Positions 9,227 to 31,786 of a DNA stretch of 64,000 nucleotides are shown in pieces. A model generated the notes under the pieces. The model made no database searches. It had not been told where the DNA came from and saw nothing but the letters and a program-made list of their open reading frames with translations. The first letter of the stretch is position 1; every line of letters starts with the position of its first letter. This DNA is from Solirubrobacterales bacterium 67-14 (lineage in GTDB: Bacteria > Actinomycetota > Thermoleophilia > Solirubrobacterales > 70-9). A program made the translations under genes and the position numbers. The stretch is from NCBI GenBank assembly GCA_001897355.1, contig MKST01000002.1:138516-202515 (forward strand). Reading direction: 5' to 3'.

Positions 9227-10294
9227 ATGAGCACGTACGAGCGAGTTGCGGAGCTGCCCCTGGAAGTCGAGTCGTGGTCCATGGAAGGGCTGGCGATCCG
9301 GCCCGCCCCGGATTTCGAGCGCCTGACCACGGTCATCCGGGTCGAAGGCGGAGGGCTGACCGGGCTCGGCGAGGACATCACCTACGAGGCACTCGACCAG
9401 ATCGCCCTGCAGGACGCCGGGCCGACCCATGACCTCACCGGGGTGAAGACGGTCGGCGAGTTCTGCGACCTGATCGGCAGCCTCGACCTCTTCCCCGGCC
9501 CGCCCGAACGTGAGGTCTCACGTCTCTACCGCCGCTGGGCCTTCGAGTCGGCGGCGCTCGACCTCGCCCTCTGGCAGGCCGGCACCTCGCTGGCCGCGTT
9601 CCTCGGCCGCCCCCTCAACCCGCTCACCTTCGTCGCCTCGATGGGCCTGGCCGGCGGACCAGGCGGGACCGAATCGGACGTGGGCCGCCTACGGGCGAAG
9701 CTCGACCGGTACCCGGAGCTTAAGTTCAAGCTCGACCCTTCACTCGACTGGGGCCAGGAGCTGATCGACGAACTGGTCGCGACCGGCGCGGTGAACACGC
9801 TCGACCTGAAGGGCCAGTACAAAGGCACGGTCGTCGACATCGAAACGGACCCGGAGCTATACCGGCGCCTGCTGACCTCTTTCCCCGATGCCTGGATCGA
9901 GGATCCGGACCTGACCCCGGAGACCCGCGAAGCGCTGAAGGACGACTGGCGCCGGGTGACCTGGGATGCCCCGATCCATTCGGTCGACGACATCGCGGCG
10001 CTTGAGCACAAGCCAACCGTGATCAACATCAAGCCCTCCCGCATGGGCGGCCTGAAATCCACCTTCGACGCCTACGACTACTGCGAGGCCGAGGGAATCG
10101 GCGCCTACGGCGGCGGCCAGTGGGAGCTCGGGGTCGGCCGCGACCAGATCCAGTACCTGGCGGCGCTCTTTCATCCCGACACCCCGAACGACACCGCCCC
10201 GGTTGGCTACAACGCCGCCGAACCCGAGCCGGGACTTCCGACGAGCCCGATGGAGGTGCCCGGAAACGGCTTCGGAAAGCCGGATGGGAGTTAG
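9227..10294 (+). CDS. Enolase-superfamily protein (mandelate racemase/muconate cycloisomerase-like)
   Basis: 355 aa. The N-terminal capping domain is followed by a TIM-barrel. Likely features are FKLDPS (the KxK-type strand, with one Lys retained), DLKGQYKGT, WIEDPDLTPETR (metal-ligand Glu/Asp strand), and INIKPSRMGGLKSTFDAYDYCE, which is the usual C-terminal barrel motif, followed by GGGQWELGVGRDQIQ. The substrate cannot be inferred. ATG is 6 nt downstream of TAGGGT (leaderless). The promoter segment resembles the right arm of the hairpin before the cupin gene at 41486 (see findings). The stop codon sits inside the terminator hairpin. Confidence 0.8.
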   Translation: MSTYERVAELPLEVESWSMEGLAIRPAPDFERLTTVIRVEGGGLTGLGEDITYEALDQIALQDAGPTHDLTGVKTVGEFCDLIGSLDLFPGPPEREVSRLYRRWAFESAALDLALWQAGTSLAAFLGRPLNPLTFVASMGLAGGPGGTESDVGRLRAKLDRYPELKFKLDPSLDWGQELIDELVATGAVNTLDLKGQYKGTVVDIETDPELYRRLLTSFPDAWIEDPDLTPETREALKDDWRRVTWDAPIHSVDDIAALEHKPTVINIKPSRMGGLKSTFDAYDYCEAEGIGAYGGGQWELGVGRDQIQYLAALFHPDTPNDTAPVGYNAAEPEPGLPTSPMEVPGNGFGKPDGS

Positions 10295-11043: not shown

Positions 11044-13356
11044 ATGTCAGTTGTTGTTCGTTCTTGGCCGGCGCGGCTTTGCGTGCTGGCGGCCGCGGCA
11101 CTTTGCCTACTGGCGGCAACCGCCAGGGCGCAGGCGGCCGACCCGGCGGTGTTCGACGTTGGCGCCGCGTCTTCAAACATCAATCCGGATGGGCCCCAGT
11201 ACGTCGGTGGTTACGGCTATCTCCAGGGACCGACCAAGGCCACCCACGACGATCTCGAAGCCCGTGCCTTCGTGGTCGGCAACGGTGACAAGGCGCTCGC
11301 CTTCGTCTCGGTCGACCTGGTCGGCTGGTTCGCCGCCTACGACGGAGTCAACGCTCCGTACGGAATCGACGCGACCCGTCAGAAGATCGCCGATGCCCTC
11401 GTCGCCCGGGGCTACGACGTCGGCCGCGAGTCGGTGATCATTTCCAGCACCCACGTCCACGCGGCACCGACCGTGGTCGGCATCTGGGGCACGATCGATC
11501 CGAACTATCTGAAGAAGGTCAGCGACGCCGCCGTTTCGGCTGCCACCACCGCGGCCGACCAGACGAAGCCATCGGAGATCTGGACCGGCGTCGGCGATGT
11601 CAGGTCGTTTATCTGGCAGAACGGCCAGGGCACCAACCACCCCGACGGTTTCGCCACCGACAACAAGCTGCCGATTCTCTGGGCCCGTGATCCCGACACC
11701 GGGGCCACCAACGCTCTCTACGCAAACGTTCCCAACCACGCCGACCAGTACCAGGCCGATGACAACGACCTGGAGATGTCGGCCGACTGGCCGGGCTACG
11801 TCCGTCGCAAACTGGACGCCATGAACGGCGGCACGGCCGTCCTCGCCCAGGGCACCCTGGGCCGCCAGGAGCCTCCGGGCAGCGTCACCGCCTACAGCGA
11901 AGTCGAGGCACAGGGCGAGATCGTCGCCAACGAGATCCAGCGGACAATGGCCAAGGCCACGCCGCTGACCGACAACACGATCGCGGCCAACGAGCAGTCG
12001 ATGCAGATCGTCGCCGACAACGAGGATCTGCTTTTGGCGATCAATTTCAATCCGACCACCGGCTCCCAGGCGGCGACGGGATTCTGCATCGAGCTCTACC
12101 AGAAATGCACGATCCCGCGTTCGAAGCAGGCGCCGTACTTCGGGCCAGGCCCCGATGACGACACCAAGACGATCGGGACCTCCGTGGAAGCGGCCCGGAT
12201 CGGCGATGTCGCCTTCGCGACCAATCCCGGCGAGGCGTTCCCGGAGGTAAACTGGGCGATCCGCGACAGCGTCACCGCGCCCAGGCAGGTCAACGTGATC
12301 GCCCAGGCCGGCGACATGCTTGGCTACTACTACGACCGCGACGATTACACGAGCCAGCAGTTCGGTTCGAGTGACTTCGAGGATTACAACGTCGGGCCGG
12401 ACCTGGCCCAGGCCAACGCCGACAAGGCGATCGCCGCGCTCGGCCAGATCGGGTTCGCAACCACGCCCAAGACGGTGCACGCCCCGTTCGACAGCAGCGT
12501 CCCGGCCAAGCCCGGCGTGCAGTGGTACCCGGACGAGTACGAGTCGACCGATCCCACGTTCAACATCCTCGGCTCGGCCGCGAAGTCGCAGGACGGCACG
12601 GCGCCGGTGCCGACCGAGATCACCTGGGATTTCGGTGACGACACCACCGGCACCACGGCCGTCGGCGAGCGGTTCGACCACACCTTCCCTGGCCCCGGCA
12701 CCTATGAGGTGACCGCGACCGTGGAGAGCAACTCACAGACCCGCACCTGGACCGACACGATCACCGTCGACCCGCCCCTGACGGCCACGGCGTCGCTGGC
12801 CAGCCGGGCCTGGGACGGTGCGCGGCTCTCGGTCTCGACCCAGGGTGGCCAGGGTGACCTGGTCGCCGCCCGCTGGACCTGCCAGGACGGCACCGAGACC
12901 ACCGGCCTCAGCGTCACCTGCGATTCGGCCAGCGCCGGCACGGCGAAGGTGACCGCGGTCGACGGCGCCGGCAACACCGCGACCGCCTCGGTCGAGGTCA
13001 GCAAGGCACCGCCGAAGCCGGCCGCCAAGCTGAAGATCGTCAGGGCGAAGGTGAAGCCCGGCAAGGTCAAGCGCGGCAAGGCCGCGAAGCTCTCGATCAC
13101 GGTGAAGAACACCGGCACCGCGGGAGCGACCAGCGCCAAGGTCTGCGTCAAGGTGCCCGGCAAGGCCAAGAAGGGCGTCAAGGCGAAGCCCGCCTGCCGC
13201 AAGATCGGCAAGCTCGCCGCCGGCAAGAGCCGCACCGTGAAGATCAAGTTGAAGACCACGAAGAAGGCCAAGCGCAAGGTGAAGCCCAAGGTCGTCTTCA
13301 GCGCCAAGGGCGTCAAGACCGTCAAGAAGACGGTGACGCTCCGCACCAAGCGCTAG
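11044..13356 (+). CDS. Secreted neutral/alkaline ceramidase-like protein with PKD domain
   Basis: 770 aa. A signal peptide (RLCVLAAAALCLLAATARAQAA) is followed by a neutral/alkaline non-lysosomal ceramidase N-terminal-type domain. It starts FDVGAASSNINPDGPQYVGGYG and has the metal-binding HxH in SSTHVHAAPTVVG (about residue 135). NPGEAFPEV and YEDYNVGPDLAQ-like segments follow in the same catalytic region. A PKD domain (TWDFGDDTTGTTAVGERFDHTFPGPGTYEV) lies at about 535-590. The C-terminus has an Ig-like part and a strongly Lys-rich CARDB-like tail (VKPGKVKRGKAAKLSITVKNTG). It probably hydrolyses amide lipids or a related substrate outside the cell; no substrate is proven. Start chosen at 11044 because AGGAGG lies 7-12 nt upstream; the track start at 11005 has none. 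Confidence 0.85.
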   Translation: MSVVVRSWPARLCVLAAAALCLLAATARAQAADPAVFDVGAASSNINPDGPQYVGGYGYLQGPTKATHDDLEARAFVVGNGDKALAFVSVDLVGWFAAYDGVNAPYGIDATRQKIADALVARGYDVGRESVIISSTHVHAAPTVVGIWGTIDPNYLKKVSDAAVSAATTAADQTKPSEIWTGVGDVRSFIWQNGQGTNHPDGFATDNKLPILWARDPDTGATNALYANVPNHADQYQADDNDLEMSADWPGYVRRKLDAMNGGTAVLAQGTLGRQEPPGSVTAYSEVEAQGEIVANEIQRTMAKATPLTDNTIAANEQSMQIVADNEDLLLAINFNPTTGSQAATGFCIELYQKCTIPRSKQAPYFGPGPDDDTKTIGTSVEAARIGDVAFATNPGEAFPEVNWAIRDSVTAPRQVNVIAQAGDMLGYYYDRDDYTSQQFGSSDFEDYNVGPDLAQANADKAIAALGQIGFATTPKTVHAPFDSSVPAKPGVQWYPDEYESTDPTFNILGSAAKSQDGTAPVPTEITWDFGDDTTGTTAVGERFDHTFPGPGTYEVTATVESNSQTRTWTDTITVDPPLTATASLASRAWDGARLSVSTQGGQGDLVAARWTCQDGTETTGLSVTCDSASAGTAKVTAVDGAGNTATASVEVSKAPPKPAAKLKIVRAKVKPGKVKRGKAAKLSITVKNTGTAGATSAKVCVKVPGKAKKGVKAKPACRKIGKLAAGKSRTVKIKLKTTKKAKRKVKPKVVFSAKGVKTVKKTVTLRTKR

Positions 13357-26143: not shown

Positions 26144-26188
26144 ATGGGCGGTACTGGGCTCGAACCAGTGACCCCCTGCGTGTAAAGC
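26144..26188. repeat. Attachment-site repeat, left (tRNA-Val 3' fragment)
   Basis: A perfect 45-bp copy of 31713-31757. It covers the tRNA-Val 3' half from the discriminator base into the anticodon loop, and the remaining tRNA sequence is absent, so it is not a tRNA gene. Confidence 0.95.
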
Positions 26189-26390
26189 CGTCCTGGTAGG
26201 CAGAGGATGAGTCAGAAGAGATCAGTTTCCCACCGTAGAGCCAAGTTGAGTCAGCTTGAGTCGGTTTGGCTCGGCCTGAGTTGGCCTGGGTTGGTACATC
26301 TCGCGGTACATCGGGAGCCGATCGACCGACGGGGCGTAACGGCAGGGAGCGTCGAAACCCATTCAGTCAAACCAGAAGGGCGGTTTGACC
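26189..26390. other. Element left end, non-coding
   Basis: 202 bp between the attachment repeat and the integrase. It holds repeated GAGT/TTGAGTC-type words and the paired GGTACAT sites listed separately. No convincing gene is seen. Confidence 0.6.
26293..26313 (+). promoter_or_regulatory. Putative integrase arm-binding sites, left
   Basis: Two GGTACAT words 11 bp apart, in a 21-bp block matching 31620-31640 at all but four positions. Placement beside both attachment repeats suggests arm-type sites for the recombinase. Confidence 0.6.
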
Positions 26391-27758
26391 ATGGAAGCGA
26401 GTTCGGAGCCGAGAGGCGCGTTGGTTGTATACGAGACCAAGGGCGGGGAACCCCGCTACAGGGCCAAGTGGCGGGATCGGACCGGCAGGCAGTGCTCGCC
26501 GACCATCGGCCCCGCGTGGCTGACCAGGAAAGAAGAGCGATGGGTCCGGCGGTCGGGGCGTCCCGACTCGGGCTTCTACGACGAGCAGCGGGCCTATCTC
26601 AGGATGGCCGAGCTGATCGCCGAGCACGACGCGGCCCTGCCGCAACCGGGCGACCCGGAGTCGGTGCCCTTCGAGGAGTTGGCCGAAGCCTGGTTGGAGT
26701 TCCTCTCCCACGGTGGCCGGGCCAAGCCCTCGACCCTGCACGACTACCGGACGATGCTCGCCCACCCCGGCCCCTGCGCGCGAGGGGGCCGCGAGCGCAA
26801 GGCCCGCATCATGCGCGAGTTCGCCAGAAGGAACGCAACCGCGATCACGACCGGCGAAGTGGCGGCCTTCCTGGACCGACTCGTGGTCGAGGGCCTCAAG
26901 GCGCGGAACGTGAACCGGCACCGCCAGGCCCTTCACGCCGTCTTCGCCTTCGGCATGAGACCGGGCACCTACGGCCTGGCGAAGAACCCGGTCTCCGACA
27001 CCGAGAAGCAGCGCGAGGACGGTCCAGCAGCGATCGACGCCTTCACGACCGAGGAGCTGGCAGCGATCGAACGGGTGGCAAGGGAGGGGTCGCACCGCGC
27101 GCGCCCTAACGGTTGGTACGGCCCAGCAGTGCACGAAGAGTGGCAGCGGATGAACGACCAAGACGCGGCGATCGTCAAACTGGCCGCCTACACCGGACTC
27201 CGGCAGGGCGAGCTACGAGCGCTCAGATGGAGACATGTGTTCCTGGGCGAGCAGCGCCTGTCGGTCGAGGAGGCAATCTCAGGTGACGAGTTCTCCACCA
27301 CCAAGAGCAGAAGGGTGAGATCGGTGCCCTTGACCGAAGCCGCCTGCGACCTGATGGTCGGGCTGCGTCGCCGAGGCCGATGGCTCAGCGACGAGGATCT
27401 GCTCTTCTGCACCAACGACGGAACCCCGCTCAACGCCTCGGCGCTCCGCAGGAGGTTCAAGCAGGCTCAGCGGAAGGCCGGGGTTCGGGTGCGCCGCTTC
27501 CACGATTTACGCCACACCTTCGGCTCGATCGCGGTGCGCCGGTTCGATCCAGTGACGGTCCAGCGACTGATGGGCCACGCCAACTTGAAGACGACCGAGC
27601 GATACCTCCACAGCCGACCACGCGCCGATGATGCCACTCGACTCGCAGAGGCCTTTGCCTCAGACGTAGAGCCCAGTCCTAAACCAACCCAGCCCGGACC
27701 CACTTCGCGCAACGGTCGTACGTCGAGGTTCCGGTTGAGGGTGAAGCTCGGACCTTGA
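26391..27758 (+). CDS. Tyrosine recombinase (site-specific integrase)
   Basis: 455 aa. N-terminal arm-binding-like region, then a SAM-like core-binding domain (FEELAEAWLEFLS...TLHDYRTML) at about 90-200, then the catalytic domain. The catalytic residues are Arg in YTGLRQGELRAL, Lys in the STTKSRRVRSVPLT hairpin, HDLRHTFGS (His-x-x-Arg), His in LMGHANLKTT and Tyr in ERYLHSRP. All are present, so the enzyme looks active. It should catalyse integration and excision at the tRNA-Val site. ATG 26391 is preferred because AGAAGGG lies about 10 nt upstream; the track uses a TTG two codons earlier. It is convergent with abiEii, with only 4 bp between the stop codons. Confidence 0.95.
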   Translation: MEASSEPRGALVVYETKGGEPRYRAKWRDRTGRQCSPTIGPAWLTRKEERWVRRSGRPDSGFYDEQRAYLRMAELIAEHDAALPQPGDPESVPFEELAEAWLEFLSHGGRAKPSTLHDYRTMLAHPGPCARGGRERKARIMREFARRNATAITTGEVAAFLDRLVVEGLKARNVNRHRQALHAVFAFGMRPGTYGLAKNPVSDTEKQREDGPAAIDAFTTEELAAIERVAREGSHRARPNGWYGPAVHEEWQRMNDQDAAIVKLAAYTGLRQGELRALRWRHVFLGEQRLSVEEAISGDEFSTTKSRRVRSVPLTEAACDLMVGLRRRGRWLSDEDLLFCTNDGTPLNASALRRRFKQAQRKAGVRVRRFHDLRHTFGSIAVRRFDPVTVQRLMGHANLKTTERYLHSRPRADDATRLAEAFASDVEPSPKPTQPGPTSRNGRTSRFRLRVKLGP

Positions 27759-27762
27759 GTGA

Positions 27763-28620
27763 CTACGCGGTTGCGATCCGATCAATGAAGGCCTGAACTG
27801 TGTCAACTGCGGTCTCTACGTCGGTTGGACTCATATGCAACTCTTCGGCGAGCGCGGCATAACCTTCGCGCCAACTCGGCTGGGCGACCAGCCGAGGGGG
27901 CCACGTCTGACCGCCCCTGGCCGTGAAGACCTGCTCGCATGCTTGCCGTGCCGTCGGCAGGTCGGCCTCCAGAGCCTCCAGCAGCTGAAGATCAACGAGG
28001 TCACGGAACCTGGGGTTCTCGTAGCCATCGGGGTATTCCTCGGTGACAGCATGAAGTTTCTGGGCGATCTGCCACCGCGTATCGAGAACCAGAACCGTCT
28101 CCGGCCCGTCGAGCCCAACCGCATCAAGCGGCAAACCTGGGATGGCCGTGAACTTCTCATGGCCGGTCTCCGCGGGCGAGATCTCCAATTGTGGCGAGGA
28201 AAGAACTCGACCGGCGAATATGACTTGCACCTTGACTTTCCTGAATTCAGCCCGACGGGGAAGACTGGTGATCTCACCCCGCCTGAAAGAGAAGCCCTCG
28301 TAAGGAGCCGCCAGCCCTTCATCGAGCAAATCTGCGAGTTGGTCCGCGTCGCCGCGCAGCACCAGGTCGATGTCGTTGGTGGCCCGGGCTTGTCCCCGCA
28401 TCCTCAGCTCCATCGCGATCCCGCCTTTGGTGGCAAACGCAGCCCGGCCTTCCGGGCCGACGACCCGCGCCAATGCGCCCGCAATCATCATCGCGGCGAT
28501 CCGTAGATTCAAGCGGCTGACCGGATAGCCCGAGTCTTTCTGCCATTGGGTGATGAGCTGCTCCAGGCGAGCCTTCGTTTTCGGGCGCTTCGGACGAGCG
28601 GCTGGATCGCCGGTGTTCAT
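27763..28620 (-). CDS. abiEii: AbiEii-type nucleotidyltransferase toxin
   Basis: 285 aa. Nucleotidyltransferase of the AbiEii/AbiGii toxin family. The motif AFATKGGIAMELRMRG and, 14 residues on, RATNDIDLVL supply the polymerase-beta-like G-G and DxD signature. A family-typical segment HEKFTAIPGLPL and QIAQKLHAVTEEY follows in the second half. In known AbiE systems the toxin modifies tRNA 3' ends or other targets using NTPs and blocks growth. It is translationally coupled to abiEi (4-bp overlap). Both catalytic motifs look intact. Specific target unknown. Confidence 0.9.
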   Translation of the reverse strand: MNTGDPAARPKRPKTKARLEQLITQWQKDSGYPVSRLNLRIAAMMIAGALARVVGPEGRAAFATKGGIAMELRMRGQARATNDIDLVLRGDADQLADLLDEGLAAPYEGFSFRRGEITSLPRRAEFRKVKVQVIFAGRVLSSPQLEISPAETGHEKFTAIPGLPLDAVGLDGPETVLVLDTRWQIAQKLHAVTEEYPDGYENPRFRDLVDLQLLEALEADLPTARQACEQVFTARGGQTWPPRLVAQPSWREGYAALAEELHMSPTDVETAVDTVQAFIDRIATA

Positions 28621-29192
28621 GCTCGCCCAGTTGGTATCCGACCCAGATCAAGGTCTTGATTCAGCCGGTCGGCAACGGCAGAACTCAGCAAGCCTTTTTC
28701 ACGGCCCCGCCGCACGGCTTGCTCGATCAGATCGAGACCGAGATGGTCGGCAGCGCATTCACGAATCGCCCGTTCCAGGGAGACGATTGGAATCCCCTCG
28801 ATCGCGGTCACCTCGGCCTCATCCAGATCCTCACGATGGATCACATAAGCCTTCGGCACTTGCCGTTGCGGTCTATGCTCCCGCGGCACCGTGACATGAA
28901 TCTTCGCGGGGTTTACGTCACTCACATCCCAGAGATCTAGCGCCGTGGCATGGCTCAAGACGCCGCGTACTCCCGCCGGCCATAGTGCCGCCTCCATATA
29001 CCCGGCAAACGGACCGGGCGGAAGGAAAGGGATTCGGTAGACCCCCTGGCTAACTCTTTCGAGCCGACCGCGCCGCGCCATCTGCGCGACGGTGTTGTCC
29101 GCATACCCGACAGCACGAGCATCTGCCAGGGTGAAAAATCCATGCTGATCAGCAGCAAGCTCAGCCAGCTCTGCGAAGCGATCGGTCGGCAT
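28617..29192 (-). CDS. abiEi: AbiEi antitoxin / transcriptional regulator
   Basis: 191 aa. The N-terminal winged-helix domain of AbiEi is clear: HGFFTLADARAVGYADNTVAQMARRGRLERVSQGVYRIPF (residues 15-55). The C-terminal antitoxin domain starts at VLSHATALDLWDVSDVNP and includes IHVTVPREHRPQRQ and IVSLERAIRECA. It should bind its own promoter and restrain AbiEii. ATG 29192 is chosen: TATTCT lies 6 nt upstream, giving a leaderless start, and the core domain follows at the usual distance. The track start at 29264 has no such signal. An AAAGGGACAAA word lies between the -35 and -10 region and recurs at 29644-29657. Confidence 0.88.
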   Translation of the reverse strand: MPTDRFAELAELAADQHGFFTLADARAVGYADNTVAQMARRGRLERVSQGVYRIPFLPPGPFAGYMEAALWPAGVRGVLSHATALDLWDVSDVNPAKIHVTVPREHRPQRQVPKAYVIHREDLDEAEVTAIEGIPIVSLERAIRECAADHLGLDLIEQAVRRGREKGLLSSAVADRLNQDLDLGRIPTGRA

Positions 29193-29295
29193 GCGCTCAG
29201 AATAGCGCATTTTGTCCCTTTTCAAGCACACATTGTGTGAGTGGTCGAAGTCGCCACCGGTCACGAAACCGAGGATCCGCCGCTACGATGGACCG

Positions 29296-29484
29296 ATGGT
29301 GGCCAGGAAACAACCAAGCGACGCCAATCCGTTCCCGCCCCACCTTGACGTAGTGCCGCTCGATGAGGAGCCCCTGAGCCCCGAGGACGAAGCGATGATT
29401 CAAGAAGGCCGGGACGACATCAAGGCGGGCCGGACCGTGAGCCTGGAAGAGGCCGAGGCGTGGCTCCGCGAATCCCCAAAGTGA
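29296..29484 (+). CDS. Small antitoxin-like protein
   Basis: 62 aa. The C-terminal half (LSPEDEAMIQEGRDDIKAGRTVSLEEAEAWLRESPK) has the acidic helix-turn-helix-like pattern typical of small antitoxins that partner RelE/ParE toxins, where I..G..DI.AGR.VSLEEA is frequent. The N-terminus is basic and Pro-rich. It is divergent from abiEi by about 100 bp. The coding sequence directly after it, in the same frame, looks like a decayed toxin, so this may be an orphan antitoxin. ATG 29296 is preferred; the track start at 29212 overlaps the abiEi promoter. Confidence 0.6.
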   Translation: MVARKQPSDANPFPPHLDVVPLDEEPLSPEDEAMIQEGRDDIKAGRTVSLEEAEAWLRESPK

Positions 29485-29613
29485 ACGGCGGCTCCGGGTC
29501 GGGACTGGCGGGTCATCTTCGATCGAGATCCTGAAGCCCATCTCATGACGATCTTCACGATCTCCCACGCGGCCGAGCCTACGAACGGTAGCCACGCCAT
29601 GCCACCAATCTGA
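29485..29613 (+). pseudogene. Remnant of a RelE/ParE-like toxin gene
   Basis: The frame continues after the antitoxin-like stop as RDWRVIFDRDPEAHLMTIFTISHAAEPTNGS and ends at TGA 29611-29613. WRVIFDRD followed by a short beta-strand-like IFTISH looks like part of a small toxin of the RelE/ParE fold. It is far too short (about 42 codons) and has no start codon near its beginning. I infer a truncated partner of the upstream antitoxin-like gene. Confidence 0.4.
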
Positions 29614-29622
29614 TGGCATGGC
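29596..29622. terminator. Hairpin after the toxin remnant
   Basis: A 9-bp perfect stem, 29596-29604 with 29614-29622, and a 9-nt loop. It overlaps the end of the remnant toxin frame. Confidence 0.6.
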
Positions 29623-29643
29623 GCGCCGCTTCACGGGAGGGGA

Positions 29644-29657
29644 TTTGTCCCTTTCCA
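29644..29657 (-). promoter_or_regulatory. Second copy of the abiEi-promoter word
   Basis: TTTGTCCCTTTCCA here matches TTTGTCCCTTTTCA at 29211-29224, inside the abiEi promoter, at 13 of 14 positions. It may be a second AbiEi operator. Confidence 0.35.
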
Positions 29658-29731
29658 GACCGACTTTTCCCCAGCACCATCCCCTTCCCACACAGTATCA
29701 CCAGAACGTATGTTCGATCTAGCGATCCAAG

Positions 29732-29784
29732 TGGTGCTGTTTTGACCCAATTGCCTTACCAGCACCATTTGTGTATAGTGGTGC
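29732..29784 (+). promoter_or_regulatory. Promoter and operator of the XRE operon
   Basis: -35 TTGCCT (29751-29756), 17-bp spacer and -10 TATAGT (29774-29779), followed 6 nt later by the ATG, so transcription probably begins on the start codon. Half-sites TGGTGCT (29732-29738), AGCACCA (29761-29767) and TGGTGC (29779-29784) alternate in direction. The last two form an inverted repeat around the -10 box, well placed for autorepression. Confidence 0.65.
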
Positions 29785-29785
29785 C

Positions 29786-30424
29786 ATGAAAAGCAATCCC
29801 GAGAAATCAGCACCAGTTGCCGACGCGGTTCGCGAAGCGAGAGAGCGCGAAGGTCTCACAGTCCGCGAGCTATCCCGTCGAGCCGGCATTTCCCACACAC
29901 AGATCAGTCGACTCGAATCCGGCGAGGTGAGCAAACCCTCGCGAGAGATACTGGTCGCTCTGGGCCGAGGCCTCGATCGGAACCCGATCCCCCTGTTGAT
30001 CCTCGCCGGCTACTACGACGAAGAAGAGGCCGTTGAAGCCTTGAAACCAATGTTCAGGGAGGACGCCGAGTTGCCCGAGGCGTGGCCCGACGGGGGCGTT
30101 TGGACCGTCGACGAAGCCAACGAGTTTCTATTCGATCCAGATCTCGGCCATGACATCGAAGAACTGAAAGGGCTCGCCGCAGACGTTTTTTCGGTACCCG
30201 AAACCGACGAGACCCTTTGGGATCCTTCGTATCTACTCGCAGCTGCCCGCGGAGACGACGCTTGGCACCTCCAACGCTTCATGGCCACCTGGCGCTACCT
30301 AGATTCTGAACTCCGGGCACGGTGGCTTGACTACGGTCTCAAACTACGCAAGATCGCTGACCTCGACTACCGGGTTGACGCTGACCTCGACCGCCGGGAC
30401 AAGGCGGGGGAGCAGGATGCTTGA
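29786..30424 (+). CDS. XRE-family (HTH_3) transcriptional regulator
   Basis: 212 aa. Residues 10-65 are a standard helix-turn-helix domain (VADAVREAREREGLTVRELSRRAGISHTQISRLESGEVSKPS). The C-terminal 140 residues are acidic and helical, with no family I recognise (FLFDPDLGHDIEELKGLAADVF, WHLQRFMATWRYLDSELRARW). This is longer than a simple repressor, so it may sense a ligand or partner. It heads a four-gene operon in which every downstream start overlaps the previous stop. The ATG at 29786 is placed by the -10 box; the track GTG at 29771 lies inside the promoter. Probably autoregulated through the GCACCA operators. Confidence 0.88.
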   Translation: MKSNPEKSAPVADAVREAREREGLTVRELSRRAGISHTQISRLESGEVSKPSREILVALGRGLDRNPIPLLILAGYYDEEEAVEALKPMFREDAELPEAWPDGGVWTVDEANEFLFDPDLGHDIEELKGLAADVFSVPETDETLWDPSYLLAAARGDDAWHLQRFMATWRYLDSELRARWLDYGLKLRKIADLDYRVDADLDRRDKAGEQDA

Positions 30425-30896
30425 GCCACGCGAAATGGGATTCGAAGGGTACGTCCCCCTTCGGGCGCTTCCACGCGGATGCCAGGAGGTGCCCCCCGAG
30501 GGTGGCGTTTATTGCGTCCTCGCAGAGAACCCCAAACCCGAGTTTGCCGACACGAGTACCGGTGGATGGTTCAAGGGGCGCAATCCCTCCGTTGACCTGA
30601 ATCAACTCGAAGCTAAGTGGGTCAATGACACGTCGACCCTCTACATCGGGAAGGCCAAGTCCCTGCGGAAACGGATCGACCAGTTCGCCAGGTTCGGCCG
30701 GGGCGAGCCGATCGGCCACTGGGGCGGTCGCTACTTGTGGCAACTGACCAACCCAGACGTTCTCCAAATCGCCTGGAAGATCGATCCGAACCCAGCACAG
30801 GCAGAGATCGACCTCATTTCAGGCTTCATCGACGTCTACGGCACTCTCCCATTCGCAAATCTGAACCGGCCCCGCAGAGCTGGGAGACCAGCGTGA
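30417..30896 (+). CDS. GIY-YIG nuclease domain protein
   Basis: 159 aa. Single GIY-YIG domain: GVYCVLAENP carries the GIY strand, TLYIGKAKSLRKRIDQFARF has the YIG strand with the catalytic Arg in RKRI, and QAEIDLISGFIDVYGTLPFANLN has the metal-binding Glu and the usual Pro...Asn ending. All key residues are present, so it should cut DNA. There is no obvious extra DNA-binding domain, so a partner may target it. The ATG overlaps the end of the XRE gene by 8 bp and follows a GGGGGAGCAGG ribosome binding site. The track start at 30327 lies inside the XRE gene and is rejected. Confidence 0.82.
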   Translation: MLEPREMGFEGYVPLRALPRGCQEVPPEGGVYCVLAENPKPEFADTSTGGWFKGRNPSVDLNQLEAKWVNDTSTLYIGKAKSLRKRIDQFARFGRGEPIGHWGGRYLWQLTNPDVLQIAWKIDPNPAQAEIDLISGFIDVYGTLPFANLNRPRRAGRPA

Positions 30897-31249
30897 CCCC
30901 GCAGATAGAGCTGCCGATCCAGTTCAAGGCCCATGCGGTCGAGCGGTACCGGGACCATCTGCGCCCAGCGCTTTCCGTGAAGGACGCCGAAGTTGACCTT
31001 CAAAGGATTGCTGCCCATGCTCGGGTTTGGTGGCAAGCGCCTCAATGGCTCGGCGGGTCCAGTCGCCAGGACGTCACGATGTTCCTAACCGTCGCCGATG
31101 CCGCATTCCCCTTGGCACCATCCGAGGATGGGACATGCCTCATAGCGTTGACGTGCCGGGTTCGCGGTTCGTTGAGCGCGAGCGTCAGGGAAAGTCGAAA
31201 TCGAAAACGCCGTGCCTGCCAGGACGATCGCAGATCGGTAAACCATTGA
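30893..31249 (+). CDS. 118-aa protein of a phage-associated unknown family
   Basis: Starts with GTG overlapping the GIY-YIG stop by 4 bp. The pattern FKAHAVERYRDHLRPALS...LQRIAAHARVWWQAPQWL...MFLTVADAAFPLAP...GTCLIALTCRVRG recalls a small family I associate with actinobacterial phages and islands. Its members carry ERYxxRxRP near the start and a TC-x-RG strand near the end. The basic tail (RNRKRRACQDDRR) could bind nucleic acid. A small RNase or toxin-like fold is possible but not shown. I do not assign a function. Confidence 0.65.
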   Translation: MTPQIELPIQFKAHAVERYRDHLRPALSVKDAEVDLQRIAAHARVWWQAPQWLGGSSRQDVTMFLTVADAAFPLAPSEDGTCLIALTCRVRGSLSASVRESRNRKRRACQDDRRSVNH

Positions 31250-31521
31250 CTACCTGGGGATGGATTGCCACCGCTGTTGTCGTGCTAGTAGTCGGTGGTT
31301 GGTTCAGCAGACTGCTCAGCCCTTACCCGGAGGACGACAAGTACCCGAAAGCCGGAACAATTGGTGAGAAGGCAACTCACATCGCGCTTCAACCCCTTGT
31401 TTCTGGCATCGGCTTAATGGGGTTTCTGCTGGTGGTTGCTGGTACCGCCATCCGGTTGATGGTCTGGGCCATCGGCCTTGCTTTTGCCTGGTACTTCATC
31501 TCGGAGATCTTTGGCCTCTAG
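31246..31521 (+). CDS. Two-helix membrane protein, last gene of the XRE operon
   Basis: 91 aa from a TTG that overlaps the preceding stop (TTGA). It has helices WIATAVVVLVVGGWFSRLL and LVSGIGLMGFLLVVAGTAI plus LMVWAIGLAFAWYFISEIFGL, so two to three membrane spans, with a short polar segment (SPYPEDDKYPKAGTIGEKATH) between. Small membrane proteins of this kind are often effectors (holin-like or pore-forming) or anchors in defence operons. The role here is inference from context only. The start rests on the overlap pattern of the operon. Confidence 0.6.
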   Translation: MTTWGWIATAVVVLVVGGWFSRLLSPYPEDDKYPKAGTIGEKATHIALQPLVSGIGLMGFLLVVAGTAIRLMVWAIGLAFAWYFISEIFGL

Positions 31522-31619
31522 CGTGAAGGCGTTGGCGTCCCGGGCCTCTTCGGGATAGCCGCTTGACCTTTCGCTCAGTTCATGGGATCTACCGTTGGTC
31601 GATCCCTCCGACCCGCCGC

Positions 31620-31640
31620 GGTACATTCAGCGGTACATCG
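31620..31640 (+). promoter_or_regulatory. Putative integrase arm-binding sites, right
   Basis: Paired GGTACAT words 11 bp apart, equivalent to 26293-26313. This 191-bp stretch between the last operon gene and the right repeat (31522-31712) holds no other signal that I see. Confidence 0.6.
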
Positions 31641-31712
31641 AAAGCGCCGTGCCGCTGAGTGCGCGACCCGCGAAAGGCGCGTTCTCAGCAGCAGAGGCGA
31701 GAATCAGACTGA

Positions 31713-31757
31713 ATGGGCGGTACTGGGCTCGAACCAGTGACCCCCTGCGTGTAAAGC
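31713..31757. repeat. Attachment-site repeat, right (within tRNA-Val)
   Basis: 45-bp perfect copy of 26144-26188. The element therefore supplies the 3' half of the functional tRNA-Val gene. Confidence 0.95.
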
Positions 31758-31786
31758 AGGTGCTCTTCCAACTGAGCTAACCGCCC
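31714..31786 (-). tRNA. tRNA-Val (TAC), site of element integration
   Basis: 73-nt cloverleaf. The acceptor is GGGCGGT/ACCGCCC with discriminator A, the anticodon stem CCTGC/GCAGG encloses TTTACAC with anticodon TAC, and the T-arm is CTGGTTCGAGCCCAG. The gene is complete despite the insertion. CCA is not encoded. Confidence 0.96.

What the first reader, a model, noticed from the sequence alone, without database searches (positions are those of the whole stretch)
26144..31757. 5.6-kb integrative element in tRNA-Val
Perfect 45-bp direct repeats flank the region. One is the 3' half of an intact tRNA-Val and the other is an isolated fragment. A tyrosine recombinase with all catalytic residues sits just inside the left repeat. 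The cargo is AbiE, an orphan antitoxin-like gene and a four-gene operon, with no capsid or transfer genes. This matches a defence-carrying phage satellite or minimal genomic island.
Basis: partly seen in the sequence, partly recalled or inferred. Interest (0 to 1): 0.7.

Follow-up and report, generated by a model that had tools for sequence, protein, structure and literature searches.

The report
Hitchhiking defence element in tRNA-Val
A 5.6-kb piece of mobile DNA carrying the anti-phage toxin pair AbiE sits in a tRNA gene. It appears to spread not by phage but by carrying a copy of the DNA 'start transfer here' signal of a 51-kb conjugative element, found in another species of the same genus, whose machinery it would have to borrow.

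Summary
Exact 45-bp repeats (26144-26188, 31713-31757) flank a 5.6-kb insert. The right repeat is the 3' half of an intact tRNA-Val(TAC). The integrase is intact. At least six genomes of the genus have a single, unoccupied tRNA-Val. A relative carries a 4.6-kb sister element at the same tRNA, and the same chromosome carries a 16.7-kb relative in tRNA-Ala.
The phage-satellite reading is not supported: no phage genes, and no viral relative resembling the element.
The closest complete relative is a 50.9-kb conjugative element in tRNA-Thr of another species, with a TrwC relaxase, coupling protein and a VirB4/TraG-like ATPase. All four elements share the integrase family and paired GGTACAT arms. 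They also share one 15-bp string, CCACACAGTATCACC, which occurs four times in 232 genomes: once in each element, and in the conjugative element just upstream of its relaxase gene. A sister motif lies just upstream of relaxase genes at 12 of its 20 occurrences in the order, and all 20 are followed by an inverted repeat. This is very probably the origin of transfer (oriT).
So the element is best read as a relaxase-less integrative mobilizable element (iOriT/MGI-like) carrying AbiE. Transfer itself is inferred; no relaxase homologue was found in this genome.

The parts
26144..26188 (-). left attachment repeat: displaced 3' fragment of tRNA-Val, 45 bp identical to the right copy
   Evidence: no tRNA called here
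26237..26313 (+). left integrase arm region: AGAGCCAAGTTGAGTC block, then GGTACATCTCGCGGTACATCG (26293-26313), conserved in position next to the left att in the related elements
26385..27758 (+). tyrosine recombinase (integrase), 457 aa, catalytic residues present; start codon uncertain (TTG or a nearby ATG)
   Evidence: PF00589 E=1.6e-28, phrog_1 E=1e-61, 63-81% identical relatives in G000, G014, G010
27763..28620 (-). AbiEii toxin (nucleotidyltransferase), 285 aa, with GG-x15-DID, KLHAV and RDLVD motifs
   Evidence: PADLOC E=5.7e-67, PF08843, motif positions, motif definitions in PMC3985639
28617..29264 (-). AbiEi antitoxin/repressor (ORF-caller start; the true start is probably further in)
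   Evidence: PADLOC E=1.9e-66, PF13338
29296..29484 (+). small antitoxin-like ORF, without a database family
   Evidence: related frame-broken sequence in G014 element
29485..29612 (+). remnant of a RelE/ParE-like toxin gene (C-terminal part only, frame broken)
   Evidence: aligned by eye with G014 ORF L022:9530-9826, which matches ParE_toxin weakly (E=0.0035, below cut-off)
29687..29716 (+). candidate oriT: CCCACACAGTATCACCAGAACGTATGTTCG. The nic-like block and proximal arm are identical to the conjugative element; the GAAC-N4-GTTC palindrome resembles the host LexA box with one mismatch
29786..30424 (+). XRE-family HTH regulator, 212 aa
   Evidence: PF13560/PF01381 E~1e-11
30417..30896 (+). 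GIY-YIG-like protein, 159 aa (weak family match); 38-45% identical homologues on 26 plasmids, mostly actinobacterial
   Evidence: PF01541 E=0.048, below cut-off
30893..31249 (+). 118-aa protein of unknown function
   Evidence: no significant family
31246..31521 (+). 91-aa protein with hydrophobic segments, probably membrane
   Evidence: hydrophobicity read from the sequence
31620..31645 (+). right integrase arm: GGTACATTCAGCGGTACATCGAAAGC
31713..31757 (-). right attachment repeat, forming the 3' half of the intact tRNA-Val
31714..31786 (-). tRNA-Val (TAC), intact; the target gene

Best explanation
The 5.6-kb segment is a relaxase-less integrative mobilizable element (called iOriT or MGI in the literature): an integrase, its two att/arm regions, an oriT and exchangeable defence cargo. 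Proposed cycle: (1) the element's integrase recombines at the anticodon loop of tRNA-Val and leaves the displaced tRNA 3' end at the far side (shown by anatomy). (2) It sits in the chromosome and provides AbiE, a type IV toxin-antitoxin known to give phage abortive infection and to stabilise mobile DNA (cargo shown; activity inferred). (3) When a conjugative element of the same family is in the cell, the island excises; the directionality factor would come from the helper or is unrecognised (inferred). (4) The helper's TrwC/MobF relaxase nicks the island's oriT at 29687-29716 and moves the single strand through the helper's type IV system (inferred from sequence identity). (5) The island's own integrase re-integrates it at tRNA-Val (inferred). 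The oriT palindrome coincides with the host's LexA-box pattern in the conjugative element, so transfer may be tied to DNA damage (speculative).
For: Integration: 45-bp repeats and tRNA; empty sites in six genomes; sister element at the same tRNA in G014, integrase-region DNA 81% identical, different cargo; tRNA-Ala relative in the same chromosome with 62-bp repeats and 69% identical integrase. Conjugative kinship: G010 tRNA-Thr element, 50.9 kb, integrase 63% identical, TrwC relaxase E=1e-80, coupling protein E=4e-43, VirB4/TraG-like P-loop ATPase E=1e-7, SSB, ParB, ArdC, lytic transglycosylase. Shared arms: GGTACATN4-5GGTACATCG occurs 9 times in 151 genomes, all at ends of these elements, none in the reversed control. 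oriT: CCACACAGTATCACC occurs exactly 4 times in 232 genomes, once per element, about 68 bp before the relaxase start in the conjugative element. The sister motif CACACAGTTGCAC occurs 20 times (reversed control 4); 12 lie within about 65 bp upstream of, and on the same strand as, a relaxase gene found independently, and all 20 are followed by a 4-10 bp inverted repeat whose sequence varies between sites. Over 15 relaxase-upstream sites the summed stem length is 67 against a shuffled maximum of 34. R388 TrwC needs the nic region and the proximal arm, while the distal arm tolerates change (PMC4176350); nic block and proximal arm are what the window copy retains exactly.
Against: No transfer, excision or nicking was observed. 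The window oriT lacks the distal arm (GGTGAT) that completes the stem in the conjugative element. No TrwC relaxase was found in this genome, so a helper would have to arrive. No excisionase was recognised (families; a crude motif scan). The conserved palindrome could be kept as a LexA operator rather than as part of oriT. Three elements plus one conjugative element is a small sample, all in one genus. Window-versus-G014 identity in the 30-bp site (28/30) is only modestly above the local 79% (P=0.03).
Confidence: 0.78

Rival explanations
1. A decayed remnant of a conjugative element: everything was deleted except the integrase and oriT, later filled with cargo, and it no longer moves.
For: The tRNA-Ala relative keeps an 841-bp gene region 79% identical to the stretch beside the oriT of the conjugative element; the RelE-like toxin is decayed; no relaxase homologue in the genome.
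Against: Integrase, both arm regions and oriT core are intact in the window copy while the DNA between differs among elements. Two sister elements at the same tRNA carry different intact cargo, and relatives have moved to at least four different tRNAs, which suggests continuing mobility.
Confidence: 0.13
2. A phage satellite (PICI/P4-like) carrying AbiE, packaged by a helper phage.
For: Small size, tRNA site, a phage-type integrase (phrog_1) and an XRE regulator.
Against: No capsid-interference, packaging, replication or portal-like gene; no substantial viral relatives of the integrase; relatives encode conjugation, not phage, genes.
Confidence: 0.04
3. The conserved 30-bp site is an SOS (LexA) operator controlling cargo, not an oriT; the island is an ordinary integrase-only genomic island.
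For: The genome's LexA box is CGAAC-N4-GTTCG (upstream of lexA, recA and an ImuB-like polymerase), and the site contains AGAACGTATGTTCG, one mismatch away, about 80 bp before the XRE gene.
Against: The most strictly conserved part, CCACACAGTATCACC, lies outside the LexA box and resembles motifs just upstream of relaxase genes in other genera that have hairpins but no LexA box.
Confidence: 0.05

Closest known systems
MGIs / relaxase-less IMEs mobilised by SXT/R391 ICEs (MGIVflInd1 family), also called iOriT elements
   Same: Integrase, att sites, an oriT related to that of an ICE, no relaxase or secretion genes, exchangeable cargo (PMC5704250 section 3.2; PMC11389934).
   Different: oriT is of the TrwC/MobF type, not the SXT MobH type; site is the tRNA anticodon loop; size only 5.6 kb; the cited 2017 review reports such elements in Firmicutes and Proteobacteria only; no excision regulator identified.
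Actinobacterial T4SS-type ICEs with MOBF relaxases
   Same: The 50.9-kb G010 relative has integrase, T4CP, VirB4/TraG-like ATPase and TrwC relaxase, the criteria used by PMC3218068.
   Different: The window element itself has none of the conjugation proteins.
CIMEs (cis-mobilizable elements)
   Same: att-flanked defence cargo derived from an ICE family; tandem tRNA-Val fragments in G003 look like this.
   Different: The window element has its own intact integrase and an oriT, so it need not fuse with an ICE.
AbiE type IV toxin-antitoxin/Abi systems on ICEs
   Same: Bicistronic AbiEi/AbiEii with all four toxin motifs; AbiE is known on ICEs, where it aids stability (PMC3985639; PMC11062541).
   Different: Here it rides a mobilizable, not a self-transmissible, element.
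Phage satellites (PICI, P4-like)
   Same: Small integrase-bearing tRNA element with defence cargo.
   Different: No phage-derived genes or packaging signals recognised; kinship is with a conjugative element.

Membership tests
Relaxase-less integrative mobilizable element (iOriT/MGI) | Own integrase and att sites at a specific site | tested here: met
Relaxase-less integrative mobilizable element (iOriT/MGI) | oriT homologous to that of a conjugative element | tested here: met
   15/15 identical core, unique to the four elements among 232 genomes, immediately upstream of the relaxase in the conjugative element; motif class tied to relaxase genes. Distal hairpin arm missing.
Relaxase-less integrative mobilizable element (iOriT/MGI) | No relaxase, coupling protein or mating-pair genes | tested here: met
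   no relaxase homologue anywhere in G000
Relaxase-less integrative mobilizable element (iOriT/MGI) | Mobilised in trans by the helper | not testable with these tools
   needs a mating or nicking experiment
Relaxase-less integrative mobilizable element (iOriT/MGI) | Excision with a directionality factor from island or helper | tested here: inconclusive
   no excisionase recognised (crude motif scan)
Integrative and conjugative element (ICE) | Encodes relaxase, T4CP and T4SS | tested here: not met
   none in the element; present in the G010 relative
Phage satellite (PICI/P4-like) | Phage-derived packaging, capsid-remodelling or satellite replication genes | tested here: not met
   PHROGs scan gives only integrase and HTH repressor matches above noise
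CIME | att-flanked but lacking integrase | tested here: not met
   intact integrase present
AbiE type IV TA system | Adjacent AbiEi (wHTH antitoxin) and AbiEii (DUF1814 NTase with motifs I-IV) | tested here: met
   K-G-G then x15 then D-I-D, KLHAV, RDLVD
AbiE type IV TA system | Toxicity neutralised by antitoxin; phage resistance | not testable with these tools
   needs expression assays

The most novel reading that the evidence does not exclude
A family of relaxase-less mobilizable islands that carry the MobF oriT of a co-circulating conjugative family, in a lineage where this is not reported in the papers read here. They ferry different anti-phage systems (AbiE, IetAS, a PDC-S60-like protein) into tRNA anticodon loops, and their oriT hairpin doubles as a LexA operator, so DNA damage, for example from phage infection, would release both helper transfer and satellite mobilisation.
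Probability: 0.25. Interest if true: 0.75.

Novelty: new variant of a known kind. Interest (0 to 1): 0.58.

Why it matters
Many small integrase-only islands with defence genes have no known way to move. Here the missing piece is a short oriT that can be recognised because the same string marks a conjugative relative and the same motif class precedes relaxase genes across the order. It gives a short searchable signature (CACACAGT followed by a hairpin) for finding MobF conjugative elements and their passengers in this group, and it suggests that anti-phage systems here travel by conjugation rather than in phage particles.

Tried and rejected
Genome contigs and viral-contig scans with the integrase gave only distant or tiny matches; the full oriT string is absent from viral contigs. 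A 16S rRNA search of the genome found none, so the host name could not be fixed; a high-G+C actinobacterial order (perhaps Solirubrobacterales) is only a guess. The idea that the G014 tRNA carries a donor 3' half (its left fragment differs from its intact tRNA) could not be confirmed, because protein identity does not make G014 the sister of the genome with the matching tRNA type. The GIY-YIG-like protein had no meaningful solved-structure relative and only seven genomes of the order, this one included, carry it. The perfect-stem search does not score the bulged stem of the G010 oriT or the short palindromes of the satellites. Left flanks differ between genomes, so most empty sites are syntenic on the tRNA/right side only.
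Full report
Observation. The 45-bp direct repeats are exact (26144-26188 and 31713-31757), and the right one is the 3' half of the only tRNA-Val(TAC) in the window (31714-31786, minus strand). The next-longest direct repeats in the region are 32 nt at 72% identity. The integrase gene starts about 200 bp inside the left repeat, reads inward and is intact. The element is lower in G+C (62%) than its flanks (67%).

Empty and occupied sites. In G011 the tRNA-Val and the esterase to its right are syntenic with the window, and no fragment or element is present. G001, G004, G005, G006 and G010 each have one tRNA-Val copy and no fragment. G014 has the same right flank and the same tRNA-Val, but a 4.6-kb element with integrase-region DNA 81% identical, the same arms and different cargo. 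G003 has two extra tRNA-Val fragments in tandem; one interval carries a different AbiE pair (27-31% identity to the window pair) and no integrase. The site is a hotspot.

A family of elements at different tRNAs. The same chromosome carries a 16.7-kb relative in tRNA-Ala(TGC) with 62-bp repeats and a 69% identical integrase. G010 carries a 50.9-kb relative in tRNA-Thr(TGT). G013 has a truncated one beside a fragment that reads as tRNA-Met/fMet(CAT) (tRNA identity read from sequence). The pattern GGTACATN4-5GGTACATCG occurs nine times in 151 genomes of the order, always at the ends of these elements, and never in the reversed control. I read it as the integrase arm-binding sites (inference).

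The conjugative relative. The tRNA-Thr element encodes a TrwC relaxase with helicase (PF08751, E=1e-80), a coupling protein (PF02534, E=4e-43), a VirB4/TraG-like P-loop ATPase (E=1e-7), SSB, ParB, an ArdC antirestriction protein and a lytic transglycosylase. It meets the criteria used for T4SS-type actinobacterial ICEs in PMC3218068.

The oriT. Comparing the four elements by blastn, the only DNA shared by all outside the integrase/left-arm region and the right end was a stretch of about 30-60 bp. Aligned, it reads CCACACAGTATCACC(A)GAACRTAYGTTCG. In the conjugative element it lies about 68 bp before the relaxase start. The 15-mer CCACACAGTATCACC occurs exactly four times in 232 genomes, once in each of the four elements, and never in the reversed control. 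Relaxase homologues across the order have a related motif, CACRCAGTTGCACC, upstream: eleven of the loci examined (the G010 element included) have at most two mismatches at 42-95 bp before the start. An independent scan for CACACAGTTGCAC found 20 sites (reversed control 4); 12 lie within about 65 bp upstream of, and on the same strand as, a relaxase gene, and all 20 are followed by an inverted repeat whose sequence varies between sites (GCACC/GGTGC, GCACG/CGTGC, GCACT/AGTGC, GCACTCACCC/GGGTGAGTGC). In R388, TrwC requires the nic region and the proximal arm of the inverted repeat, while the distal arm tolerates change, and some HUH-relaxase nic sites have no inverted repeat (PMC4176350). The window copy keeps the nic-like block and proximal arm letter for letter and has lost the distal arm. 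I take 29687-29716 as a probable oriT; nicking is untested.

SOS link. CGAAC-N4-GTTCG occurs at 20 places in this genome (reversed control 2), including upstream of genes that read as lexA, recA and an ImuB-like polymerase (gene identities by eye). The conjugative element's oriT hairpin contains a perfect copy; the three small elements have one mismatch. Control of transfer by LexA is therefore possible, not shown.

Cargo. Each of the four elements carries a known or predicted defence gene: AbiE in the window, a PDC-S60-like protein in G014 (E=2e-15), IetAS in the tRNA-Ala element (E=8e-84 and 2e-36), and a PRTase_III-A-like/PRTase-CE protein in the conjugative element. The window AbiEii has the four motifs needed for toxicity in PMC3985639. 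AbiE can also stabilise mobile DNA, so phage defence and element maintenance are both plausible. The XRE, GIY-YIG-like, 118-aa and 91-aa genes remain unassigned; GIY-YIG-like homologues occur on 26 plasmids, mostly actinobacterial. The small antitoxin-like ORF is what is left of a RelE/ParE-like pair, also broken in G014.

Mechanism and limits. Shown by sequence: insertion at tRNA-Val, an intact integrase, shared arms, an oriT-like site, AbiE cargo, and absence of conjugation and phage genes. Inferred: excision, nicking by a helper relaxase, transfer and re-integration. No relaxase homologue was found in G000, so the helper is absent or was missed; G010, which carries the conjugative relative, is the closest genome by Lgt identity among those compared (90%).

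Comparison with the known. Relaxase-less IMEs are described as MGIs in Firmicutes and Proteobacteria (PMC5704250) and as iOriT in PMC11389934. The element meets the sequence-testable features of that class; trans-mobilisation was not testable. It fails tested features of ICE, phage satellite and CIME. What appears new is the host group, the MobF-type oriT, the small size and the possible LexA overlap. A search for papers on such elements in Solirubrobacter found none relevant, but the host taxon was not established.

Noticed in passing
G000:C2:307674-324354 (L038:675-17355): A second integrative element in the same chromosome: 16.7 kb in tRNA-Ala(TGC) with 62-bp repeats, 69% identical integrase, IetAS defence pair, RES/Xre-like and PIN-type toxin-antitoxin genes, and the same oriT core.
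   Followed up: partly
G010:C24 about 2.3-53.3 kb (L039-L041): A 50.9-kb conjugative element in tRNA-Thr(TGT) with MobF relaxase and a PRTase-CE plus ORC-CDC6-like module; candidate helper.
   Followed up: partly
G003:C14:2131-8086 (L090): Two extra tandem tRNA-Val fragments; one interval holds a different AbiE pair and no integrase, a possible CIME at the same hotspot.
   Followed up: partly
G014:C12, L022:7608-7653 versus 12159-12204: The displaced tRNA-Val fragment has a different T-arm sequence from the intact tRNA, as if the element had supplied a donor 3' half.
   Followed up: partly
L123, L127-L131, L133, L134: Eight oriT-like CACACAGTTGCAC sites with hairpins but no relaxase match within 1.5 kb; L134/L141 (G111) has an integrase of this family beside tRNA-Pro(GGG) and an 805-aa P-loop protein, perhaps further relaxase-less passengers.
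   Followed up: partly
L102, L103, L104 (G000): Host LexA box inferred as CGAAC-N4-GTTCG, upstream of lexA-, recA- and ImuB-like genes.
   Followed up: partly
window 30417-30896: GIY-YIG-like protein with 38-45% identical homologues annotated as hypothetical on Streptomyces, Rhodococcus and Mycolicibacterium plasmids.
   Followed up: partly
L005, L006, L018: More distant integrases of the family have paired GGTACC or GAGTACC repeats near the gene instead of GGTACAT, suggesting arm sites that diverge with the integrase.
   Followed up: no
L038 about 9360-10197 and the G010 element: An 841-bp region with a gene of unknown function is 79% identical between the tRNA-Ala and tRNA-Thr elements and lies just upstream of the oriT in the conjugative one; possibly an accessory transfer gene.
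   Followed up: no
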